This document shows, piece after piece, positions 30,587 to 56,382 of a DNA stretch of 64,000 nt. Below the pieces are notes generated by a model, which saw nothing but the letters and a program-made list of their open reading frames with translations, did not search any database and had not been told where the DNA came from. The translations under genes were made by a program, and so were the position numbers. The DNA lies in assembly GCA_903843305.1 (NCBI GenBank), contig CAIMPI010000016.1, forward strand, positions 124,001-188,000, written 5' to 3'. The first letter of the stretch is position 1; the number at the start of each line of letters is the position of its first letter. Source of the DNA: an uncultured Chlorobiaceae bacterium. GTDB taxonomy: Bacteria > Bacteroidota > Chlorobiia > Chlorobiales > Chlorobiaceae.

Positions 30587-30684
30587 CGATAAACTGCGTC
30601 CTGCTGGTGGCTTTTGTTGCTGAGGAATACTGGTTTTGAAACTGCTTGATTTCAGGTAATGTTCACTCTCTCAATAGTGAAGCA

Positions 30685-33600
30685 ATGGCAGACTCTTTTC
30701 TCTATGATGTTTTCCTGAGCCACAACCACGCGGATAAGCCTAAGGTGCGGCGTCTCGCTGAGCGCCTAAAGGTTGCTGGTGTTCGGGTATGGCTGGATGA
30801 GTGGGTTGTCAAAGCTGGCGACATTATCTCTTTGAAAGTGGATGAGGGGCTGGAGCAGTCGCGGGTGCTGTTGCTCTGCATCTCGCCCGCAGCACTGGCT
30901 TCGGGTTGGGTGGCGCTGGAGCGGAGCACCGCCGTCCACCGCGACCCTGCAAACGTTGGTCGCCGCTTTATCCCAATTTTACTTGCAGAATGTGATCTTC
31001 CTGATACGCTTGCGAAATACAAGTATTTGGACTTCTGCGATGAATCTGATGTTGCTTTTGCGGAAGTGCTGACCTCATGCAAGCCAGGAACAGATTCTTT
31101 TCCCCCATCTTCTCAGCATGAGGTTCAGAAGAGAGCAGTAGCGAAAAAGTCAAAATCGGCAACGGCACAGCGGGCGCCTGAACAACTTGCAGTGCTTGAG
31201 AGGAAGCTTATGGGACATAAAGGATGGGTGCGCAGTGTGGCCGTCAGCTCGGATGGCTCTTGGATGGTATCTGGATCGCACGATAAGACGCTCAAGATTT
31301 GGGATCTGGAGAGTGGTGAATGCCAAGTGACGCTTCAAGGGCATACAGGCAAGGTGCTTTCAGTCGCGATCACACCTGATAGAAAGCGGATTCTTTCAAG
31401 TTCAAATGATACGTCGATCCGTATTTGGGATACTCGTTTTGGCAATGAATTGGCGAAGGTGTTTGGTCATAAGCAAGCACAATCAGTGATCGCGTTGCCG
31501 GATAATGATCGAGGACTTTCTGCCGAGAGTTTGACTCTAAAGCTGTTGGATCTTACTGTGGGAGTCTGTCTCAAGACCATTCAATGCAATGAGTATATCT
31601 GGACTAGCGCCCTCAATCAGGCGGGGAACCAAGCGTTGTCAGGGCATGGAGATGGACGAATTCGGCTTTGGAATCTCGAGTCAGGCAAATGTCTGATGAT
31701 TCTTAAAGGCCATTCGGGAGGTGTAAGATCTGTTCAGATTTCGCCGGATGGACGTTCTGCTGTATCTGCTGCGCAAGACAAGACCATCAAAGTTTGGAAT
31801 CTCGAAACGGGGGCCTGTATTGGAACGTTGGAGGGACATCAAGATCGAGTGTTTTCTGTTGCCATCTCCTCCGATGGTACCTTGATTGCTTCTGCGGGGT
31901 TCACTGACCACACGGTTCGACTGTGGGATTGGAAATCGGGGAGATGCTTGCAGGTGATCACAGCCGATGATAATTGGAAGCCGATGTCTGTCGCTTTTAG
32001 TCCTGATGGTTCGCGGCTTGTGGTGGGAATATCTGGGAATACAATTTATGTTTATCGTCTTCGCAGTACTCTACGCAAACTTCCAGTCGTGGCTACGCGT
32101 CGCTACGTGAATGCCAAGGTGGTGCTGCTCGGGGAGGGAACTGCGGGCAAAACTTCTCTGGCGCATCGGTTAATTGAAGATCGATATGTCATCAAGGATC
32201 GCACGCATGGCATGAATGTCTGGCGGCTGGAGCTACCGCTTTCGCCAGACGCCACGCTGGAACGCGAAGCTTTGCTCTGGGATCTTGCTGGACAGGAGGA
32301 TTATCGCCTGATTCATCAACTTTTTCTGGAGCAGACCGCGCTGGCGCTGCTGCTTATTAACCCCCAGAAGGAAGACCCATTTTTTGAAGCAGGAGACTGG
32401 CTCAAGGCTCTGCAGACTGCCGCGAGCATGACGTCATCTGCGAGAGAAGCTGCACGCTTGTTGGTCTTTTCCCAGATAGATGTCGGTGGGATGAAGCTAA
32501 GTAATACGAAGATTAAGCGCTTTTGTGAGCAGCACAGTTTTGCTGACTGGCTCCCAACAAGCTCTAAGTCAGGTGAAAATTGCTCGGATAAAGAGAATGG
32601 TGGAGAGCCCTCGAAACTGAAACAGTTCATTGCTCAGAGCATTCCTTGGGACAAGCTGGAGTGGACGAGTACACCGCGTTTGCTGGCAGAACTGAAGAAT
32701 GCCGTGATGGCTATGCGCGATGAGTCGGACATCCGGTTGCTGCGGTTTGCCGAACTGGCGCAGCGATTGAAACAAGCATTGCCGTGGGAAAAGTTTATAG
32801 AGTCCGATGTGCGCACGGCAGTGACGTTGCTTGCCAACCATGGCTTGGTGCATCCGCTGAAGTTTGGTGATTTAGTGCTACTGCGTCCCGACCTTATCAA
32901 TGGTTACGCTGGGGCAGTAATCCGTGCGGCGCGAGCGCATACGGATGAGATCGGTTGTGTGTTGGAGGCAGATATTTATAAAGAGGATTTCGACTTCATG
33001 GGTGTCGAGCGGCTGAAGCATCATCCCGATGAGGAGCTGCTCCTGCGGGCGCTGGTGCAGACCTTTCTCGATCATTCGCTCTGCATCGCTGAGGATACGC
33101 CGCACGGTCGCCACCTTGTTTTTCCGTCGCAATATCGTCGAGAAAAGGACATCCCGCATGAACCGGATATCTTTGTCTCCTACACCTTCAGCGGCGAATG
33201 GCAGACGATATGGACTACGCTGGTGGTGCGTCTCTGGTACAGTCAGGAATTTGTGCATCGCGAATTGTGGCGAAATGCAGCGGAGTTTGAATCGTCAAGG
33301 AAGCAAACGTTAGGCTTGAAGGTAACGAAAGAGGGAAATGGCGAAGCCTCCATTAGCCTTTACTTTGACCATCAGGTTTCCGATGACTTGAAGGTAATTT
33401 TCATCGAATATGTTCACCGGCATTTGGCCAAGTACGCTTGCGACGTGACGCGAGACCGACGGTATGTCTGCCCGGAGTGCGGCAAGCCTGTCAAAGATAT
33501 TGAAGCAGTTCGCGAACGCATCGCCGACGGAAAGAGCTTCATTATCTGTAATAAGTGCGATGAAAAAGTGCCGTTTATTGACTTTATCGAGCAACGGCTC

Positions 33601-34110
33601 AAGAGCGATCCTGTTGCCCGCGAGATTTTGGCAATGGACGACAATACTAACCGACAACTCGATACCCAAGCGCTAGAGCAAATCCTCATTGGTCATATCA
33701 TGGCTATTGTTGGTGAGGCAAACCAGATATTTCGTCCGGTAACAATGTTCGACTATGGCATTGATGGTGAAGTGGAGTTCAAGGACAACGATGGCAAGGC
33801 CAGCGGCAACAAAATCTACGTACAGCTCAAAAGCGGACACTCCTACCTGCGCACCCGCAAAAGCGATGGTCGCGAGGTCTTCGACGTGACGAACGACCGC
33901 CACCTCGATTACTGGATCAACCAGCCAGTGGTTGTCTATCTCGTTATCCGTCAAAAGGAAGAGATGAGCGGCGAGGAAGTCATCCGCTGGATGAATGTGA
34001 CAAGCTACCTCAAAAATCGGAAGGAAAAGCAAAGCCGCCAGATAATCTTCAGTGGGGAGAAACTCGACATGAAAGCTGTGTATCGGGTGCGGGATAAGTT
34101 TTTTCCATGA
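30685..34110 (+). CDS. TIR-WD40-Roc GTPase-zinc ribbon-DUF4365 multidomain protein (candidate defence protein)
   Basis: A 1141-residue cytoplasmic protein; the ORF track begins at a TTG 39 bp earlier, and I prefer this ATG. Numbered from the ORF-track start, the domains are: TIR (about 17-135, YDVFLSHNHADKPKV, with the probable catalytic Glu in SGWVALERS at 92); seven WD40 repeats (about 190-472; GHKGWVRSV, GHTGKVLSV, GHSGGVRSV, GHQDRVFSV are clearest); a Ras-of-complex GTPase (P-loop GEGTAGKTSL near 495, DLAGQE near 546, SQIDVG as G4); a winged-helix/COR-like region (about 680-930); a CPEC..CNKC zinc ribbon (942-971); and DUF4365 (about 1006-1154, GIDGEVEF and YVQLKSG, a PD-(D/E)xK-like nuclease pattern). 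Two possible effectors flank a sensor and a GTPase switch. The neighbours are a DUF1016 nuclease and small ORFs. Confidence 0.88.
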   Translation: MADSFLYDVFLSHNHADKPKVRRLAERLKVAGVRVWLDEWVVKAGDIISLKVDEGLEQSRVLLLCISPAALASGWVALERSTAVHRDPANVGRRFIPILLAECDLPDTLAKYKYLDFCDESDVAFAEVLTSCKPGTDSFPPSSQHEVQKRAVAKKSKSATAQRAPEQLAVLERKLMGHKGWVRSVAVSSDGSWMVSGSHDKTLKIWDLESGECQVTLQGHTGKVLSVAITPDRKRILSSSNDTSIRIWDTRFGNELAKVFGHKQAQSVIALPDNDRGLSAESLTLKLLDLTVGVCLKTIQCNEYIWTSALNQAGNQALSGHGDGRIRLWNLESGKCLMILKGHSGGVRSVQISPDGRSAVSAAQDKTIKVWNLETGACIGTLEGHQDRVFSVAISSDGTLIASAGFTDHTVRLWDWKSGRCLQVITADDNWKPMSVAFSPDGSRLVVGISGNTIYVYRLRSTLRKLPVVATRRYVNAKVVLLGEGTAGKTSLAHRLIEDRYVIKDRTHGMNVWRLELPLSPDATLEREALLWDLAGQEDYRLIHQLFLEQTALALLLINPQKEDPFFEAGDWLKALQTAASMTSSAREAARLLVFSQIDVGGMKLSNTKIKRFCEQHSFADWLPTSSKSGENCSDKENGGEPSKLKQFIAQSIPWDKLEWTSTPRLLAELKNAVMAMRDESDIRLLRFAELAQRLKQALPWEKFIESDVRTAVTLLANHGLVHPLKFGDLVLLRPDLINGYAGAVIRAARAHTDEIGCVLEADIYKEDFDFMGVERLKHHPDEELLLRALVQTFLDHSLCIAEDTPHGRHLVFPSQYRREKDIPHEPDIFVSYTFSGEWQTIWTTLVVRLWYSQEFVHRELWRNAAEFESSRKQTLGLKVTKEGNGEASISLYFDHQVSDDLKVIFIEYVHRHLAKYACDVTRDRRYVCPECGKPVKDIEAVRERIADGKSFIICNKCDEKVPFIDFIEQRLKSDPVAREILAMDDNTNRQLDTQALEQILIGHIMAIVGEANQIFRPVTMFDYGIDGEVEFKDNDGKASGNKIYVQLKSGHSYLRTRKSDGREVFDVTNDRHLDYWINQPVVVYLVIRQKEEMSGEEVIRWMNVTSYLKNRKEKQSRQIIFSGEKLDMKAVYRVRDKFFP

Positions 34111-47082: not shown

Positions 47083-48504
47083 TTATCGAAACAGGTCAAG
47101 ATCATTGGCCATCAGGCACATAATCGCTTCGCGTGACTCTACAATGCGCTCAACCAGATCAGGACGGCAGAGCAGCCTGAACTTTTTGGTATAGCGCTCA
47201 AACGCGAGAATAAAGTCTGACTGAAAGACCGACTCATTAAGATCATCAAACCGGACATACTCTGAAGTACACTGCATGGCGTAGTGGATGTGCTCCGAGC
47301 GTGTCGGGTAAACCCGAAGCTCTTTCAGGTCGGCGTAATCGAAAATATCCTTCTTTGATGGCGGATCAATCAGTACCTCATGGCCATGTAGCCCGAGATG
47401 GTAGCGCTTGTTGAGAAAATCGCAGATCTCCAGCTCCATCGCGCGGCGCATACTGTTGTCGCTGTTATAGACAAACCACCGTTCATCCTCTTTTGCTGAA
47501 TCGTTCAGATAGGGCTGCACGGTTATTGCTCTTTTGTAAACTCGTCGCATGAGGATGTCATCAAGCAGTGCAGAGATCGGATGATCCTTCTCCGGCAGCA
47601 GTTGCTTCAGTTCATGCAGCACCCGGTCATCGGCATTGCCATAAAAAAGATCACGCAAGGCCGCCGATGAGAGCATCCCTTCACTGGCAATATCCTGCAA
47701 CAGCCTGCGGAGCATGGCCGAGAGCGCACGGCTGGTATGGTGCCAGTAGACATTGCGCATCATCATGTACTTCGCAAACATCAGGCTCTCAAGCGGCGCA
47801 ATGCCCTTTTCAGTGATGGCGAACCGCTCGCGCTGGGGGTCGGGCACAAACGACTCAATCAGCCGCTCAATATCAATGCTTCCATACGGAATATTGCAGT
47901 GGTGCGCGTCACGCATGAGATAGTCCATCTTGTCAGGGTCGAGCGTGCCGCTGATCAGTTTGCTGAAGCGTGTTTTGCCCACAATCAGCTCAATAACTGA
48001 TTCTGGCGATACCTTCCACTCATCATGCAGAATTTCAGCAATCGTCGGAACTCCGGGATGTTGCTCATAGATAAAGTACTTGCAAAGCTCCTCATGATGC
48101 GAGAAAACCGGTTCGTTGCCGAACTGCGGAATTTGCTCCTCAATGATGTGGGCATGGGGAAAGTGGCCAATATCATGCAAGAGCGAAGCCGACAGCAGCA
48201 CCCGGCAATTGTGGTCATCAAACCGGAACTGCTCATCCTGAAGGCTCTGAGCCAGAGGGCTGGTCAACATGCGCTGCAAGATCAGCTTCATCAGATGATA
48301 GACCCCGATAGAGTGCTCAAATCGCGTATGTGTTGCTCCAGGGTACACCTGCTGCGAGAACGAGAGCTGCCGAATCCCCTTGAGACGAAGAAACGAAGGG
48401 TGCGACAGAATTTTTTTCAGGGGTCCGCTCAGCGGGATGTGCCCCCAGATCGGAATACGAATAAATCCGCCGTCAGATTGAAAAAGCAGGTGTTCGGCTA
48501 TCAT
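47083..48504 (-). CDS. HD-domain phosphohydrolase (dGTPase/SAMHD-like)
   Basis: 473 residues. The HD motif is LLHDIGHFPHAHIIEE with an upstream HTRFEHSIGVYHL histidine, and a later GTLDPDKMDYLMRDAHH supplies the last metal ligand, the pattern of SAMHD1-like and dNTPase enzymes. The substrate is unknown: dNTPs or another nucleotide. It is the host gene from which a ~112-bp fragment has been duplicated to 56140, beyond the defence island. An operator-like palindrome lies upstream. Confidence 0.88.
   Translation of the reverse strand: MIAEHLLFQSDGGFIRIPIWGHIPLSGPLKKILSHPSFLRLKGIRQLSFSQQVYPGATHTRFEHSIGVYHLMKLILQRMLTSPLAQSLQDEQFRFDDHNCRVLLSASLLHDIGHFPHAHIIEEQIPQFGNEPVFSHHEELCKYFIYEQHPGVPTIAEILHDEWKVSPESVIELIVGKTRFSKLISGTLDPDKMDYLMRDAHHCNIPYGSIDIERLIESFVPDPQRERFAITEKGIAPLESLMFAKYMMMRNVYWHHTSRALSAMLRRLLQDIASEGMLSSAALRDLFYGNADDRVLHELKQLLPEKDHPISALLDDILMRRVYKRAITVQPYLNDSAKEDERWFVYNSDNSMRRAMELEICDFLNKRYHLGLHGHEVLIDPPSKKDIFDYADLKELRVYPTRSEHIHYAMQCTSEYVRFDDLNESVFQSDFILAFERYTKKFRLLCRPDLVERIVESREAIMCLMANDLDLFR
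48053..48164. repeat. Direct-repeat copy A (inside the HD gene)
   Basis: 112 bp of the HD gene, covering HFPHAHIIEEQIPQFGNEPV and on to EQHPG. Repeated in the same orientation at 56140-56251 with about seven mismatches. The two copies bracket the Avs-like and restriction-modification genes. Confidence 0.9.
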
Positions 48505-48803: not shown

Positions 48804-50849
48804 TTAATTTTCAATTTGAAGTGTAAGTTCTCTCGTATTACCGACACGATTCTCAAATAACAAATCCCACGTGTCCATGCACTGACTCAGTAACTGCTGA
48901 TCGTCCTGACTTTGAGCTTGCTCGTAGAGCCGAAGCAGAAGCGGCGGTATCATTTTAGCATCAGCGGCAATTCCTTGAGATATATTCCGAGACATATCAC
49001 TTAGAGAACCAGAAAAAACAGCACATATTGAAAACAACAGTTCTGAATACGGTATCAATGCACCTGAATATTCTTTGAGAGCATGAAGAAATGGAGACGG
49101 ATCACTTTGAAATGCTTTTGATCGGATATACTTGCTAATAAAATCATGTGCATTGGGAATAGAAAATATTTTTTTATCGTAAAAAGCAGAATTTATTTTT
49201 CGCACTATGTCCATATCTTCCTCTTCGAAAAAATACGAAAGCAATTCCTGACAATTATCTGAATATTTACTTTCTAAAAGAAATTGTGCAGCTATTTCAG
49301 CAACTCCTCTCCGCTGAAAAACAGATCCTTTACAGCAACGTCTCATCTCATTCTCGAAGAATCCATAAAATAGCCAGCGAGCTGTTGCTTCTTGGGAACC
49401 CCGCATAGACACGTCATCCAAAGAAGAATTAACCATACGAACAATAAGAGAAGAAAGCCTATCACTATAGAGTTCCACTAGTTCATTATATAAGTAAACC
49501 GCCCTCTGTACAGCAGCAATCCTGATATCATCTTCACAAGCTTTAACAAACCAATCGACAGCCAACGTCTCATTGGAATGAGCTGTTGCCAAGCAAATTT
49601 CAATTACAGAAATTCGAACTGCTGGATGACGATCTACAAGGAGTAACTCTATTGTATCATGGAACAACCTAATGTAAGCTTCGTTTTTCCATATAAGAGA
49701 GGCAATGGTACGAGCAGCAACACCTCTAACACAGTTAAGCGAATTAGATTCAAGTGTATACACAGACGCCTCTTCACTTGTCTTATCACATTGAATATTA
49801 AGTTTCTGAGGCTCTGGATCAGAATGATTTACTGCATAGTCTTTCAACTTTTCAATAATCTCATTGGAATAAGGGACTCCCGGTCTTTTCTGAATTAACC
49901 AGCATAGGGAACATGCAAATTCACGATCATTTGAGGAGTGAAACTTATCGACAACAGCAAAAACGGTGTCATCGCTGGCCATTTTCCATATCTGATTATC
50001 TTCAGCAGGCACTTCTTTTGGAATACTGTTTTCGCTTATAGATCTGAAAATAGCAATCAAATATGGTACTGGTGTATTTTCAGAAAAACGCAATGCCAAA
50101 CGACCAAAACGCTCAGGGAAACGATTTGCCATCCAGCCTAAATCCATAGAAAATGTGTAAATCGATGATTCTCCTTTTTCTTTAAAGGCATGTCGCCAAT
50201 CATTACCTTTGCTATAGATTTTCTCATTACTGACTATTCGTAACCAAGAGTTTTCACTTAATCGTACTTTTGCATTTGAAGGAATGGGAGATTTCACCCA
50301 ACCTGTGTAGCTATGGCTTCCGCGAAAAGACCATTCAGGAATATTTTCAAATTTCCGGTTAAGCACTTGAATCAAATCATTTGCTCGAATGCTTCTTTTT
50401 TTTTCGTCAAGAGCAGGTAATAAAAAGTACTGAGCCTTTCCCCAAAAAGGATAAAACAAACCAGTTCGCCATTCTTTTAATGTTTTTGTAGCGAATTGCT
50501 TTTCAAGCGGTTCATGGTAATGAATTATAAAATATTCAAGTTGATTAAATACCGATTTAGTGCAATAGGGTGATTGTTTTTTTACCAACCTCACAGCAGA
50601 GGCCCAGGGCTCTTCATTATTTAGCCCTAATGTTAGTCTGGAATCTTTTTCGATAAGCCATAACAATGCCTGATCAGCATGTTCAAAATGAATAGATGCG
50701 TAAAGTTCACAAACAATGATATCAAAGAACAACAGAGAACTATTTTTCCAGGTATTTATCCATAGAATCACCTCTTCATTATTGTCGTTTACAAGTATTT
50801 TTCCTGAATCAATAACAGCGGATAAAACCCCTCGAAAAAATCCTTCCAT
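48804..50849 (-). CDS. C-terminal part of an Avs-like STAND protein (helical repeats)
   Basis: 681 residues, largely alpha-helical with HEAT/TPR-like repeats (RHPAVRISVIEICLATAHSN is clearest). No enzyme motif is seen. It ends CMDTWDLLFENRVGNTRELT, which looks like the C-terminus of long STAND NTPases. Its start overlaps the upstream 874-residue ORF by 41 bp in the next frame, and the two products join smoothly if one T is removed from a TTTTTT run near 50842. I read it as the second half of one ~1550-residue protein. A true second gene, translationally coupled, is the alternative. Confidence 0.75.
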   Translation of the reverse strand: MEGFFRGVLSAVIDSGKILVNDNNEEVILWINTWKNSSLLFFDIIVCELYASIHFEHADQALLWLIEKDSRLTLGLNNEEPWASAVRLVKKQSPYCTKSVFNQLEYFIIHYHEPLEKQFATKTLKEWRTGLFYPFWGKAQYFLLPALDEKKRSIRANDLIQVLNRKFENIPEWSFRGSHSYTGWVKSPIPSNAKVRLSENSWLRIVSNEKIYSKGNDWRHAFKEKGESSIYTFSMDLGWMANRFPERFGRLALRFSENTPVPYLIAIFRSISENSIPKEVPAEDNQIWKMASDDTVFAVVDKFHSSNDREFACSLCWLIQKRPGVPYSNEIIEKLKDYAVNHSDPEPQKLNIQCDKTSEEASVYTLESNSLNCVRGVAARTIASLIWKNEAYIRLFHDTIELLLVDRHPAVRISVIEICLATAHSNETLAVDWFVKACEDDIRIAAVQRAVYLYNELVELYSDRLSSLIVRMVNSSLDDVSMRGSQEATARWLFYGFFENEMRRCCKGSVFQRRGVAEIAAQFLLESKYSDNCQELLSYFFEEEDMDIVRKINSAFYDKKIFSIPNAHDFISKYIRSKAFQSDPSPFLHALKEYSGALIPYSELLFSICAVFSGSLSDMSRNISQGIAADAKMIPPLLLRLYEQAQSQDDQQLLSQCMDTWDLLFENRVGNTRELTLQIEN

Positions 50850-53433
50850 CTTTATTTACAAAGAAATCCTCAATAAGCCAATCATCAGTCTTATGATCAC
50901 CAGTAAACAATCTTTCTATGTGAGGAACAAAGTATTGCCATGTCTTTTCGGGGTGTTTAGCGGCAAAACTCAAAAATTGCTTTAACTCGTTATCATACCA
51001 ATGAATAATATTTTTGTTGAATTTCAGGGTACTATCTCCAGAAAAAATATCTTCAGGCAATAAGTTAGAAAGAATTGCATCGGCGATCTCAAAAAATCTC
51101 ACAGGATATTTTTCTGCTAATTTTCCCCAATCTATATATTCGTTATAAATACCTTTACTGGCAAGTTTAAGCCTTAGCTCAAACATTTTTGCAGAATCAT
51201 CTTGTATCGACCAGCATAAACAGTGAAGAATATCAAAATCATCAATAAGAGCACTTTCGAGGTATGGATCAATTGATAATGCTACTTCGTCTTGCATTTT
51301 ATCAGAAACAGATCGAAGAAGCAGCAATGCCTTTTCTCTGAAATAATCATCCCCCTTATCAAGCCAGTGATTGATATGCCCATCATCAATCAGCCACTGA
51401 AGATGTTTAACCCTGCCGAACAAAACGGTCTCAAGAACATGCTCCCTCCATTCACTATGATTCAGTAACTCTATCAAATACGATTTAAAAGATTCAGTAG
51501 CAGTTTCAATACCGGAGAGTACCGCAAGAGTAAGATGCTTCAAGTGGAACCTGACATCTGGTGATTCCAAGATCTCCTTTATGGCTTTCAAAAAATATTT
51601 TGGGGATTCATCACTGAGAAATGTGAGTATCAAGCGTAGCTGCTCTCGCCTGAATAATGTCTGTTTCGCCTTACTTCCCAGCCAGGAAAGAACCGTACCA
51701 CGCTCTTTGTAAATCTCTTCAATGAGTTTTTGTGCAATACGGTAATCCATATAACTCTGGTGACAGAAACTGATATGACTTTCGGTGATATGCACAACGC
51801 CAAGTGATTGAATGGCATCAAGCACCTTTGAACGATTCGGAAGAAGTGACTTTGGCGCACTATTGAAGCCGTTACGCTCCATATAACATGTCAGCGTATC
51901 GATCACTGAATCAGTCTCTTGCTCAGACAGACCTAATCTATTGATTTCTCTATACCGATCACCCCAAAAACTCCGAATAAGGCCAGTAATAGATTGGAAA
52001 ATTGGGACCCTGTCATTTTTTGCAATCTCAACCCACATGCCAAGCATCAAGGGTGAACCAAGAGTCTCCATCTGTTTTTCAGTGAGAGCATTACAATCAT
52101 GCTGAATCTTGGTAATAACATTTTTGATAGAATCATCAGAAAGTTTCCCAACCTCAATCTTTTGGGTGTTGTGATCTACTAACGAAAGCAGGTTTTTGAT
52201 ATCGGGGTCGTGATCCAAATCGAAAGTACGGGAAACAAGAACCACATGAATCGGATGCAGACGTTCTCGAGACAATTCTTTTGCCTCTCTGAGAAGCTCC
52301 TTACAAACGTCAAGAGAGTTAGCTGAATGGAGACTTGTCCATCGCAACGCATCAAGTTGATCAAGAATAATCACTGAACAATTATCACCTGCAATTGCAT
52401 CCAGACAGTAAACCGGAGATTCTGGCAGACCAAGAGCTTTGCCAAACAGTTTTGGATTATTTTTAGGTCTGTTTCTATCCAATCTAATCGGTAGATACGC
52501 GACTCTGGCAGCTAAAAGAAGGCGTGTCAGCTCATAAACAACCCCACTTTTTCCTTGCCCGGCTTTTCCATGAAGCACAAGAAATCTTGACTTATCCGCT
52601 TGTAGTGCGCTATAGAGTTCTTGAGTCTCTGACCGCTCAATCAACTCTCCAGCAATGAGAAATGGCTTGATCGACTCTTCAAATTTGGTTTGAAGCTTTT
52701 CGATTGCAGGAAAAATTCTGTTATCATTGGATAAACGTCTGAAAGACAATTCATGCTTTGCAAGGTACTGGCGAACAGCTTCCAACGTGATTGTCTCTCG
52801 AAGATTATCTTTCGCAAATTGAACAAGCAGTGAAACCGTGGTTTCAGAGTCCCCTGAAACGTATACAGCAGTTCGTTCCAATAATTTATCTTTTGCATTG
52901 GAATCAAAGGGTTCAAGTATAATCTTAATCCGTTTGAGATAATCATAAGCCTTGGCTCGATCTTTTTTAATTGCATAATCAAGTTGCAGCTTTTTACAAA
53001 ACTGTTGGAATATTGAAAGACGCTCCAGTCCTATCTCTTTAATTTGAGACTCATAGAAATTTTCAGGATTTCCGTTTGACTTTCTTGCACTTTCGCAAAT
53101 ATCTCCTAACACAGTGAAAGGCACTCCTGATACGAATGAAAAATGATGATCAAAATCTCTATCTAATTGATCACGCATGTGTTCAAGAACGCCGCTTAAA
53201 TCTGAAACGCTCCATTTTTCTTTGCTGGCGTTTCGTGCTTTGCATTGTTGCGCTTCTTTTTTCCCATTCTTGTGGGTGAGCCAGAGGTCAACACCTCGCT
53301 CATCGTCACCAGTCGCCTCGTAGGAAACTGAGCGCACTCTTTCCGCTATAAGATCAACGAGCTTTTGCGCCACCCATAACTCTTCATATTGATTGCCAAG
53401 TTTATCAGAATATCCACCAGGTTCGAAAGCCAT
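50809..53433 (-). CDS. N-terminal part of an Avs-like STAND NTPase with nuclease domain
   Basis: 874 residues. Residues 1 to about 160 are a restriction-endonuclease-like domain (GDDERGVDLWLTHK with D49, QQCKAR with K65), as in Mrr/Cap4-type effectors. A STAND/AAA-like NTPase follows (Walker A VLHGKAGQGKSG near 288, Walker B SVIILDQLDAL near 350). From about 560 it is helical repeats. The layout matches antiviral STAND (Avs) proteins, which sense a phage protein and then cut DNA. The ORF ends abruptly after FFVNKDGRIFSRGFIRCY, in the overlap with the next ORF, which suggests a frameshift. It is downstream of the restriction-modification pair on the same strand. Confidence 0.85.
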   Translation of the reverse strand: MAFEPGGYSDKLGNQYEELWVAQKLVDLIAERVRSVSYEATGDDERGVDLWLTHKNGKKEAQQCKARNASKEKWSVSDLSGVLEHMRDQLDRDFDHHFSFVSGVPFTVLGDICESARKSNGNPENFYESQIKEIGLERLSIFQQFCKKLQLDYAIKKDRAKAYDYLKRIKIILEPFDSNAKDKLLERTAVYVSGDSETTVSLLVQFAKDNLRETITLEAVRQYLAKHELSFRRLSNDNRIFPAIEKLQTKFEESIKPFLIAGELIERSETQELYSALQADKSRFLVLHGKAGQGKSGVVYELTRLLLAARVAYLPIRLDRNRPKNNPKLFGKALGLPESPVYCLDAIAGDNCSVIILDQLDALRWTSLHSANSLDVCKELLREAKELSRERLHPIHVVLVSRTFDLDHDPDIKNLLSLVDHNTQKIEVGKLSDDSIKNVITKIQHDCNALTEKQMETLGSPLMLGMWVEIAKNDRVPIFQSITGLIRSFWGDRYREINRLGLSEQETDSVIDTLTCYMERNGFNSAPKSLLPNRSKVLDAIQSLGVVHITESHISFCHQSYMDYRIAQKLIEEIYKERGTVLSWLGSKAKQTLFRREQLRLILTFLSDESPKYFLKAIKEILESPDVRFHLKHLTLAVLSGIETATESFKSYLIELLNHSEWREHVLETVLFGRVKHLQWLIDDGHINHWLDKGDDYFREKALLLLRSVSDKMQDEVALSIDPYLESALIDDFDILHCLCWSIQDDSAKMFELRLKLASKGIYNEYIDWGKLAEKYPVRFFEIADAILSNLLPEDIFSGDSTLKFNKNIIHWYDNELKQFLSFAAKHPEKTWQYFVPHIERLFTGDHKTDDWLIEDFFVNKDGRIFSRGFIRCY

Positions 53434-53537: not shown

Positions 53538-55115
53538 TCATCCCCCAAACAAAGCCAACTGCTGCCCTGACAATATCGGCTGAAAGTCTGGTATCAAGTC
53601 GGCGATCTCCGAAGCATCAACATTAGCAAGTTCACCGGGTTCAAGCTTGTGAAGCCCTCCTCCATAAACCCGACCTTCACCCATAAGCTGCTCGGGAGTA
53701 ATCCGGTTGAGCATTTCCCAAGCATGACGCAGTATTGTTGCATCCTGTTCTATAGCCTTCGCCAATTGCGGTTTAGGGTACATGGCAAGGTAGACATTAG
53801 CTACCGTTGCAGAGGAATTGTTCAGGATAAAGCGAAACGGACGCCCACTCTTTGTGTTGCTCCGCCCGAGATAGGTGCAGACAATCGGAGCGGGTGGACG
53901 GTTTTCTTGAGCATACCACGGTGAACGGTGGCAGCTAAGATAACGCTCATGGACTTTTCGTTGCTTGCCCTCTTGCAGATAAGCAAAAAGAGCAGGATAG
54001 CTTTCCCTGATTCTCTCTTCAGGAAGCTTCGTATCGAGAAGGTAAAGCTGTCGGTCAAGAAGTGGCAGGCCATTTGTGTCGGCGCTCACTTCGCAATCAG
54101 TCAAATATCGTGGACTTGGAAGTATAGGCCGGAATGCCACCAGCGGAAGATTTCTTGCAATGATCTCTTTCAGATTGAGGATAAAAAAATCATTATCTCC
54201 GGTGGCAATACCTCGTCGGATGTCAAAAAAGTCGGATATGAGAGCGTTTGATCTCTTTGGTCGAATCTCGGATTGGGGAAATCGGCTCCATTTTCCTTCA
54301 TCAGCAAGAACGTCTGTCGAAACTTCGCGAATTTTCTGAGGGTCAAGCAGTGTGCCACCAAACGAAAATATAACGTTATGATGTACCGGAGGTATCTCTT
54401 TTTTAAACAAGACTATGGCGGAAGAGACAAGAGCATCAGCAAACTGAACATCATCAGGGTCGAAACGATGAATTTTCAGCAGTGTCACTTTTTCAAGCAG
54501 GTAGCGCTTGACAGCTTTACCATAATTAACGTCCATGAATTCGCTCGGTATGAGCCAACCCGCAATTCCCCCATCCGCCATCCATGCGTGTGACAATCCA
54601 AGAAAGTAGCAATAGAGTCCAGCAAGGCCACTGATGTTCATGCCGCTTGCATGAGATGTATAATTCTGGAGGCGTGACTTATCATTATTATTGAGATGAT
54701 GATGCCGCACATAGGGGGGATTGCAGATAATCAGATTAAAATGCCTTTCAGGTTTTTCAGTGGTAAAATCTGAAAGTTTAATCGTAAAATCCGAATTTCT
54801 CCAGAGATGCGATGCTGGTTCTCCGTAATGGGGGTCAATTTCAAAACCATGCGCTTCGGTAATCTGTTCTTCAGGAAACACTTGCCGTAATGCCGAAAAA
54901 AACGATCCCGTGCCAACAGCAGGGTCGAGAAAACGAATATTCTCTCCTTCAGGTATCAGGGTGGCTGCATAAGTCAGGATATCAAGGGCAAGTGCTGTTG
55001 GCGTTGCAAATTGACCAAGTCGGTTTCTTTCTGCTTGAGTTTTTTTTGCATCAAGTTCGGTCTGAAGCTTAATGCGTCCTTGTTCGAATCCATTAACTAT
55101 TCTGATCATTGTCAT
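53538..55115 (-). CDS. Type II DNA N6-adenine methyltransferase (Eco57I-like)
   Basis: 525 residues. LGQFATPTALALDILTYAA and FLDPAVGTGSFFSAL (SAM-binding motif I) precede the catalytic NPPYVRHHHLNN (motif IV, adenine-N6). The C-terminal half is a target-recognition region. The restriction endonuclease gene overlaps its start by 4 bp. It should protect the host from the XamI-like nuclease. Confidence 0.9.
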   Translation of the reverse strand: MTMIRIVNGFEQGRIKLQTELDAKKTQAERNRLGQFATPTALALDILTYAATLIPEGENIRFLDPAVGTGSFFSALRQVFPEEQITEAHGFEIDPHYGEPASHLWRNSDFTIKLSDFTTEKPERHFNLIICNPPYVRHHHLNNNDKSRLQNYTSHASGMNISGLAGLYCYFLGLSHAWMADGGIAGWLIPSEFMDVNYGKAVKRYLLEKVTLLKIHRFDPDDVQFADALVSSAIVLFKKEIPPVHHNVIFSFGGTLLDPQKIREVSTDVLADEGKWSRFPQSEIRPKRSNALISDFFDIRRGIATGDNDFFILNLKEIIARNLPLVAFRPILPSPRYLTDCEVSADTNGLPLLDRQLYLLDTKLPEERIRESYPALFAYLQEGKQRKVHERYLSCHRSPWYAQENRPPAPIVCTYLGRSNTKSGRPFRFILNNSSATVANVYLAMYPKPQLAKAIEQDATILRHAWEMLNRITPEQLMGEGRVYGGGLHKLEPGELANVDASEIADLIPDFQPILSGQQLALFGG

Positions 55116-56089
55116 ATCCCGAAAAGTGCCAAGTCGTCAATGCGATGTTCCCAAACCCAGTCGAGTCCTTCGGCGGCCTCATAGCCGAGATAGCCAGTAT
55201 CGAAATAACCACAGAGAAAAAGGTTGAATTGTACCTTTTTTCCATAGGTGTTTCGGAGCTGGCTCATCTTGACCGCTTCTTCCTTTCGACGTTTGTTCGT
55301 GTTCGTAAAGTCACCTGCTGATTTTGCCTCAAAGAAAATTGGTAGTGAGTGCTTTTTCGCTTTTTTTGGCATGATAATAGCGTCAACAGGAATATTAACA
55401 TTTTTCAGGCCGCTGTCAAGTTTGACAGGAACATTCATGCGGAAAGAAAATGTTCCATTTGGCATTGTATCAAAATGGAGGTTTTCACCACTTTGTATCT
55501 GCTTGTAGCCACGAGCTTCCAGCCAGGATTTTATCGTGGCAAGCTGACGTTTTTCTTGAGCATTGCGAATAATCGGATTTGCAACAGCACCACAGAGGCG
55601 ATCTGCCACGATAGTTGCTGCTCTATGTATTTCGGCATCCTTTACTGGTTCATGACGTCCTAACCAGATAAATATGTCAGGGTCCGCCATTTTTTCAAGA
55701 ATGGAGGTTATTTTTCCGAGTTCCAGATCCAGCACTTCTGAACTCATTCGGGAGGGTAGTCGTTTTTTCAGTTCCAGACTTTTAACGAGATTTGCAGGAA
55801 CGCCGGAAAGTCCAATGAGACGATCCGCCGCAAGAGGAGGACAAGCGGACATGCGAAGTGTTGGCAGAATATCAGGATGCTCACGAATTATCGACGGATC
55901 TATTCTTGTCATGTTAACAGTTGAGTGCAGAGCTGTTTCTACATCTTTCGTTGTCTGCATTCGTGTTGAACGAAAAGCATCAGGAGCGAATTTCATGAAC
56001 CAGTCATTATACATATCGACTGATTGTGCAATATCGGTTTTCCACCGCGTTGGTTTATCAAGGTTTACGGCCATGCTTTTATTCCTCAA
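55112..56089 (-). CDS. XamI-like type II restriction endonuclease
   Basis: 325 residues. The N-terminal half (WKTDIAQSVDMYNDWFMKFAPDAFRS) and the late PVDAIIMPKKAKKHSLPIFFEAKSAGDFTNT, a PD-(D/E)xK catalytic pattern (D, then E-A-K), match my memory of the XamI family, whose known member cuts GTCGAC. Specificity here is not shown. It is first in the unit, its stop overlapping the methyltransferase start by 4 bp. The true start may be the second methionine (MAVNLDKP). Confidence 0.82.
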   Translation of the reverse strand: MRNKSMAVNLDKPTRWKTDIAQSVDMYNDWFMKFAPDAFRSTRMQTTKDVETALHSTVNMTRIDPSIIREHPDILPTLRMSACPPLAADRLIGLSGVPANLVKSLELKKRLPSRMSSEVLDLELGKITSILEKMADPDIFIWLGRHEPVKDAEIHRAATIVADRLCGAVANPIIRNAQEKRQLATIKSWLEARGYKQIQSGENLHFDTMPNGTFSFRMNVPVKLDSGLKNVNIPVDAIIMPKKAKKHSLPIFFEAKSAGDFTNTNKRRKEEAVKMSQLRNTYGKKVQFNLFLCGYFDTGYLGYEAAEGLDWVWEHRIDDLALFGI

Positions 56090-56139: not shown

Positions 56140-56251
56140 CCGGGATGTTGCTCATAGATAAAGTACTTGCAAAGCTCCTCATGATGCGAGAAAACCGGCT
56201 CGTTGCCGCATTGCGGAATCTGCTCCTCAATGATGTGGGCATGGGGCCAGT
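56140..56251 (-). pseudogene. Fragment of the HD phosphohydrolase gene (direct-repeat copy B)
   Basis: Reads on the minus strand HWPHAHIIEEQIPQCGNEPV and on to EQHPG, clearly the HD gene (copy A at 48053-48164), with about seven base differences and no coding context. It lies just beyond the restriction gene start and marks the far edge of the island. The surrounding 56090-56382 holds nothing else I can support. Confidence 0.9.
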
Positions 56252-56382
56252 GCGGGTTTAGATGGTTGCTTTGGCAAGATACGCAAGAAAGTGGGGGGTG
56301 GCAAATTGTGGCGGGGGAGTGTTCGGGATGTTCTCGGCAGTACTTTTTTGCAAAGTTGCTTTAATCCCCTTAAACGCAAAAC

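What the first reader, a model, noticed from the sequence alone, without database searches (positions are those of the whole stretch)
48804..53433. Avs-like STAND nuclease split in two ORFs by an apparent +1 frameshift at a T run
The 874-residue ORF (nuclease, NTPase, repeats) ends in an out-of-frame tail, and the 681-residue ORF of helical repeats begins 41 bp upstream of its stop in the +1 frame. Dropping one T from the TTTTTT near 50842 joins them (..DGRIF-RGVLSAVIDSG..) into a ~1550-residue protein, a normal size for Avs proteins. It may be phase variation by a homopolymer, decay, a sequencing error, or a real two-gene system.
Basis: partly seen in the sequence, partly recalled or inferred. 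Interest (0 to 1): 0.7.

Follow-up and report, generated by a model that had tools for sequence, protein, structure and literature searches.

The report
Frameshifted STAND nuclease defence gene
What looks like two genes is one bacterial anti-phage defence gene (a nuclease fused to a switch and a long sensor arm) interrupted by a single reading-frame error that its relatives lack, so it is most likely a recently broken copy of a known kind of gene and not a two-gene system.

Summary
The 874-aa ORF (50809-53433, minus) and the 681-aa ORF (48804-50849, minus) overlap by 41 nt in different frames, and homology runs straight from one into the other. At least 72 homologs from many phyla, including three species of the same genus, carry an uninterrupted ~1,500-aa reading frame across this point; none is split there and none has the T6 run. 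The closest (41-46% identical) resume RGVVELV.. exactly where this protein resumes RGVLSAV.. after the shift. The +1 shift must lie within 21 nt (50855-50835), which contains the T6 run. Models show a Cap4/DUF4297-type nuclease plus a NACHT/STAND ATPase in ORF1 and a helical-repeat sensor in ORF2. The architecture resembles Avs3/Avs4, but sequence profiles place it with PADLOC PDC-M54A and PDB 9n00, not Avs1-5. A conserved two-gene system and programmed frameshifting are disfavoured. A recent single-lesion knockout of a horizontally acquired defence gene is most likely. Sequencing error and T-run phase variation remain possible because no second genome of the species was available. About 13 of 74 assessable relatives are also broken, elsewhere. 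Low interest.

The parts
50809..53433 (-). 5' part of the gene: PD-(D/E)XK nuclease of Cap4/DUF4297 type (about residues 8-230), NACHT/STAND NTPase (about 236-683), start of helical repeats; last 8 residues out of frame
   Evidence: conserved motifs kept (E39, D49, Q63-x-K65, Walker A 289-296, Walker B D358-D361)
48804..50849 (-). 3' part of the gene: helical HEAT/ARM-like repeat arm, presumed sensor
50835..50855 (-). 21-nt interval in which the +1 frame change must lie; includes the T6 run 50835-50840
53538..55115 (-). Eco57I-family N6-adenine DNA methyltransferase, upstream neighbour in the same orientation
55112..56089 (-). XamI-type restriction endonuclease
56140..56252 (+). 113-bp stray copy (95% identical) of part of the HD-domain gene (48053-48165), at the right edge of the inserted block

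Best explanation
A single ~1,540-residue STAND defence protein (Cap4-type nuclease, NACHT-like ATPase switch, helical-repeat sensor), apparently acquired in one block with a XamI-type restriction-modification pair, is interrupted by one +1 frameshift in the linker before the distal repeats. The mutation probably arose by slippage at the T6 run and probably recently. Translation from the normal start makes nuclease, ATPase and proximal repeats without the distal sensor arm, so the system is probably off in this strain. That both halves are one gene is shown. That the intact protein senses a phage protein and cuts DNA is inferred from family resemblance. That the lesion is real, recent and inactivating is inferred.
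For: At least 72 homologs have uninterrupted frames through the equivalent point and none is split there; the T6 is absent at that point from all whose DNA was printed. Closest homologs resume RGVVELVIxAG against RGVLSAVIDSG right after the shift. A single solved 1,523-aa chain (9n00) matches ORF1 at residues 46-648 and ORF2 at 989-1522, E 4e-57 and 6e-18. Motifs are intact in both halves: 2 of 51 strongly conserved N columns and 1 of 25 C columns deviate. No further stop or shift occurs in 4.6 kb. About 13 of 74 assessable relatives are broken at other places, so inactivation is common in this family. Both halves fold confidently (pLDDT 89.8 and 91.5). Only one copy is in the genome.
Against: No reads and no second genome of the species, so an assembly error is not excluded. 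Apart from the one lesion the gene looks intact, which also fits a reversible or erroneous indel. The C-part/N-part identity ratio is slightly low (0.92 against 0.94-1.03 for intact relatives); this is weak and could reflect relaxed constraint or simple distance.
Confidence: 0.66

Rival explanations
1. Sequencing or assembly error at a homopolymer; the gene is intact in the organism.
For: Lesion lies at or next to a T6 run; draft assembly of 55 contigs; otherwise intact gene.
Against: 90 runs of 6 or more bases in 34 other ORFs of the window leave those ORFs open, and this gene itself keeps an A9 and two A7 runs in frame; completeness 99.94%; rpoB is intact.
Confidence: 0.2
2. Phase variation: the T run switches the defence gene on and off in the population.
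For: Lesion at a homopolymer; the rest of the gene is preserved.
Against: T6 is short for a phase-variable tract (general knowledge); the run is not conserved in homologs; a longer A9 tract in ORF2 is in frame.
Confidence: 0.08
3. Programmed +1 frameshifting or transcriptional slippage makes the full protein from the split frames.
For: The only route between the frames is +1 at or beside a run of identical bases; the codon after the shift, CGA, is uncommon (6.4 per 1000 in the window ORFs).
Against: No homolog uses it; no stimulatory structure (z 0.20); T6 is short for efficient slippage (general knowledge); the zero-frame codon TCG is not rare (12.6 per 1000).
Confidence: 0.04
4. A genuine two-gene system in which the sensor arm is made separately from ORF2's own start and acts in trans.
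For: ORF2 has an ATG inside the end of ORF1, in a linker between folded parts, so split halves could in principle assemble.
Against: Zero of 72 or more homologs are split here. L033, the nearest case, is broken upstream of this point with stops in all three frames. By eye no Shine-Dalgarno-like sequence precedes the ATG.
Confidence: 0.02

Closest known systems
PADLOC candidate family PDC-M54A
   Same: The best defence profile for both halves and for intact homologs (E 1.6e-7 for ORF1; down to 2.7e-19 for homologs); similar total length (profiles of 1621-1657)
   Different: Only the ATPase region and a short C-terminal stretch align; the function of that candidate system was not looked up here
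PDB 9n00/9n01/9yix 'AAA family ATPase', 1523 aa
   Same: Both halves align colinearly to one chain
   Different: Remote similarity; no paper with these codes was found in the library, so its biological name is unknown to me
Avs3 and Avs4 (8dgc, 8dgf)
   Same: Nuclease-STAND-helical repeat architecture; top Foldseek hits (E 3e-13 to 3e-12); VIA-align Z 14.7 (rmsd 12.5, 408 aligned) and 16.8 (rmsd 17.4, 494 aligned)
   Different: Not matched by sequence profile in PDB at E 0.1; no PADLOC Avs model listed
Cap4 and HerA-associated DUF4297 nucleases (6vm6, 9c1m)
   Same: N-terminal domain fold, Z 13.5 (rmsd 4.5, 192 aligned) and 14.0 (rmsd 3.2, 172 aligned)
   Different: Here fused to a STAND ATPase, not to a SAVED domain or paired with HerA

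Membership tests
STAND NTPase defence proteins (broad sense) | N-terminal effector, central NACHT/STAND NTPase, C-terminal repeat sensor in one chain | tested here: met
   Models and fold comparison; one chain in homologs, though interrupted in this genome
STAND NTPase defence proteins (broad sense) | Walker A and B motifs | tested here: met
   HGKAGQGKSG and ILDQLDAL conserved
Avs1-Avs5 (AVAST) | Match to Avs sequence profiles | tested here: not met
   PADLOC scan lists PDC-M54A, no Avs model at E 0.1 (ORFs) or 0.01 (homologs)
Avs1-Avs5 (AVAST) | Activation by phage terminase, portal or another phage protein | not testable with these tools
   Needs phage assays; the role of Avs activators is described in PMC12931631
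PDC-M54A | Profile match over the protein | tested here: inconclusive
   Significant but partial match
Two-gene split system | Homologs split at the same place | tested here: not met
   0 of 72 or more
Programmed frameshift gene | Conserved slippery site and stimulator | tested here: not met
   Site not conserved; RNA fold z 0.20
Phase-variable gene | Run length varies among cells or strains | not testable with these tools
   Only one genome of the species is held

The most novel reading that the evidence does not exclude
The T6 run is a reversible switch, or supports low-level slippage, that keeps a dangerous nuclease-STAND sensor mostly off, with a small share of full-length protein giving bet-hedged phage defence.
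Probability: 0.1. Interest if true: 0.5.

Novelty: new member of a known kind. Interest (0 to 1): 0.18.

Why it matters
It removes a possible false 'two-gene Avs system', shows how a broken STAND gene can look like an operon, and points to a diverse family (about 70 intact relatives seen) of Cap4-type nuclease STAND proteins of which about one in six assessable copies is broken. If the run were variable in cultures, it would be a test case for phase-variable abortive immunity.

Tried and rejected
Viral contigs held no relative of either half. Searching plasmids gave only distant, single-ORF homologs. phmmer of each ORF alone against PDB gave nothing; profiles were needed. Foldseek and VIA-align of ORF2 only return generic HEAT/ARM proteins, so no sensor specificity can be read from it. 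L033 was examined as a possible second natural split and rejected: stops in all frames. The neighbourhoods of 80 relatives showed no widely conserved partner gene. Paper searches for 9n00 and for frameshifted defence genes found nothing usable.

Full report
Observation. ORF1 (50809-53433, minus, 874 aa) and ORF2 (48804-50849, minus, 681 aa) are present and overlap by 41 nt in different frames. The coding strand at the overlap reads TAAATAAAGATGGAAGGATTTTTTCGAGGGG. In the ORF2 frame the TAA at 50858-50856 is a stop, so the frame change lies between 50855 and 50835. The T6 run (50840-50835) is the longest run in that interval, but the interval is a linker of variable length and the exact base cannot be deduced. 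Only a +1 change joins the frames.

One gene, not two. In the same genus, three species encode the homolog as one frame of 1508-1524 codons. A Planctomycete plasmid protein spans both halves. A scan of 84,980 genomes with the ORF1/plasmid-homolog alignment gave 80 loci, the closest 41-46% identical over ORF1. In a six-frame comparison, at least 72 homologs (plasmid, same-genus and scan loci together) read without interruption through the equivalent of residue 866. In the alignment the conserved block after the linker (RGVVELVILAG and similar) matches RGVLSAVIDSG immediately after the frame change; the ten closest homologs are 41-45% (N) and 37-41% (C) identical. PDB chain 9n00_A (1523 aa) is matched by the ORF1 profile at 46-648 and by the ORF2 profile at 989-1522.

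What the protein is. AlphaFold2 models are confident for both parts (mean pLDDT 89.8 and 91.5), with low confidence at 848-874, where the linker and the out-of-frame tail lie. Residues 8-228 align to the DUF4297 nuclease of HerA-DUF (Z 14.0, rmsd 3.2, 172 aligned) and residues 4-235 to Cap4 (Z 13.5, rmsd 4.5, 192 aligned). Residues ~236-683 align to NACHT domains of NLRs (Z up to 24.1, rmsd 4.4, 383 aligned). The first three Foldseek hits are Avs3 and Avs4. ORF2 is all-helical and matches generic HEAT/ARM solenoids. PADLOC places ORF1 and intact homologs with PDC-M54A, not with an Avs model. It therefore works like an Avs-type sensor (inference) but is not shown to be a member of Avs1-5. PMC12931631 describes nuclease effectors for Avs1-4 and sensing of phage packaging proteins; this is the basis for the functional inference.

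Why it is split. The site is not conserved: none of the homologs whose junction DNA was printed has a T6 run in the linker. The local RNA fold is no better than shuffles (z 0.20). By eye no Shine-Dalgarno-like sequence precedes ORF2's ATG. Programmed recoding and a conserved two-gene design are thus disfavoured. Apart from the shift the gene is open, and conserved positions are kept (51 strongly conserved N columns, 2 deviating; 25 C columns, 1 deviating), so the event is recent, reversible or an error. Among 90 runs of six or more bases in 34 other ORFs of the window none interrupts its ORF (these ORFs were chosen as open frames, so this is only a weak control), and this gene's own A9 and A7 runs are in frame. 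Completeness is 99.94% and rpoB is intact. A sequencing error is therefore less likely than a real lesion but not excluded. About 13 of 74 assessable relatives from the scan are broken at other positions (L033, L041, L060, L082, L088-L090, L092-L096, L099; contig-end truncations and the ambiguous L039 left out), including isolates, so loss is common in this family.

Context. Directly upstream, in the same orientation, lie an Eco57I-type methyltransferase and a XamI-type endonuclease. The region around the gene is AT-rich relative to the window. The block from about 48.6 to 56.1 kb sits between the HD-domain gene and the ETF-QO gene; both are widespread in the genus, but in the relatives examined they do not sit next to each other. 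A 113-bp, 95% identical piece of the HD gene lies at the right edge of the block, which points to insertion with rearrangement. In relatives the spot beside the HD gene holds different genes, so it is variable. A few other species of the genus carry related restriction-modification DNA.

Verdict. An ordinary explanation (a frameshifted member of a known kind of defence gene) is by far the most likely; the only interesting residue is phase variation, which needs population sequencing.

Noticed in passing
56140-56252 and 48053-48165: 113-bp duplicate (95%) of part of the HD-domain gene at the far end of the inserted defence block; probable scar of the insertion or rearrangement.
   Followed up: partly
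53538-56089: XamI-type restriction enzyme and Eco57I-type methyltransferase pair; 78-80% identical DNA occurs in two other species of the genus, and weaker or partial matches in more.
   Followed up: partly
30646-34110: 1154-aa ORF starting like a TIR-domain protein (FLYDVFLSHNHADKPKVRRLAERL...); possibly another defence or STAND gene. Judged by eye only.
   Followed up: no
L142 (own genome contig C16, 49660-49836): Match to only the first 59 of 259 positions of the MmeI methyltransferase family in a 129-codon frame; possibly a remnant of a broken type IIG enzyme.
   Followed up: no
L029:2644-5895: 1083-aa ORF that clusters by similarity with the STAND family members, upstream of the full-length homolog of the same locus.
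   Followed up: no
L033, L041, L060, L082, L088-L090, L092-L096, L099: About one in six assessable relatives of this STAND gene is frameshifted, stopped or truncated, at different places.
   Followed up: partly
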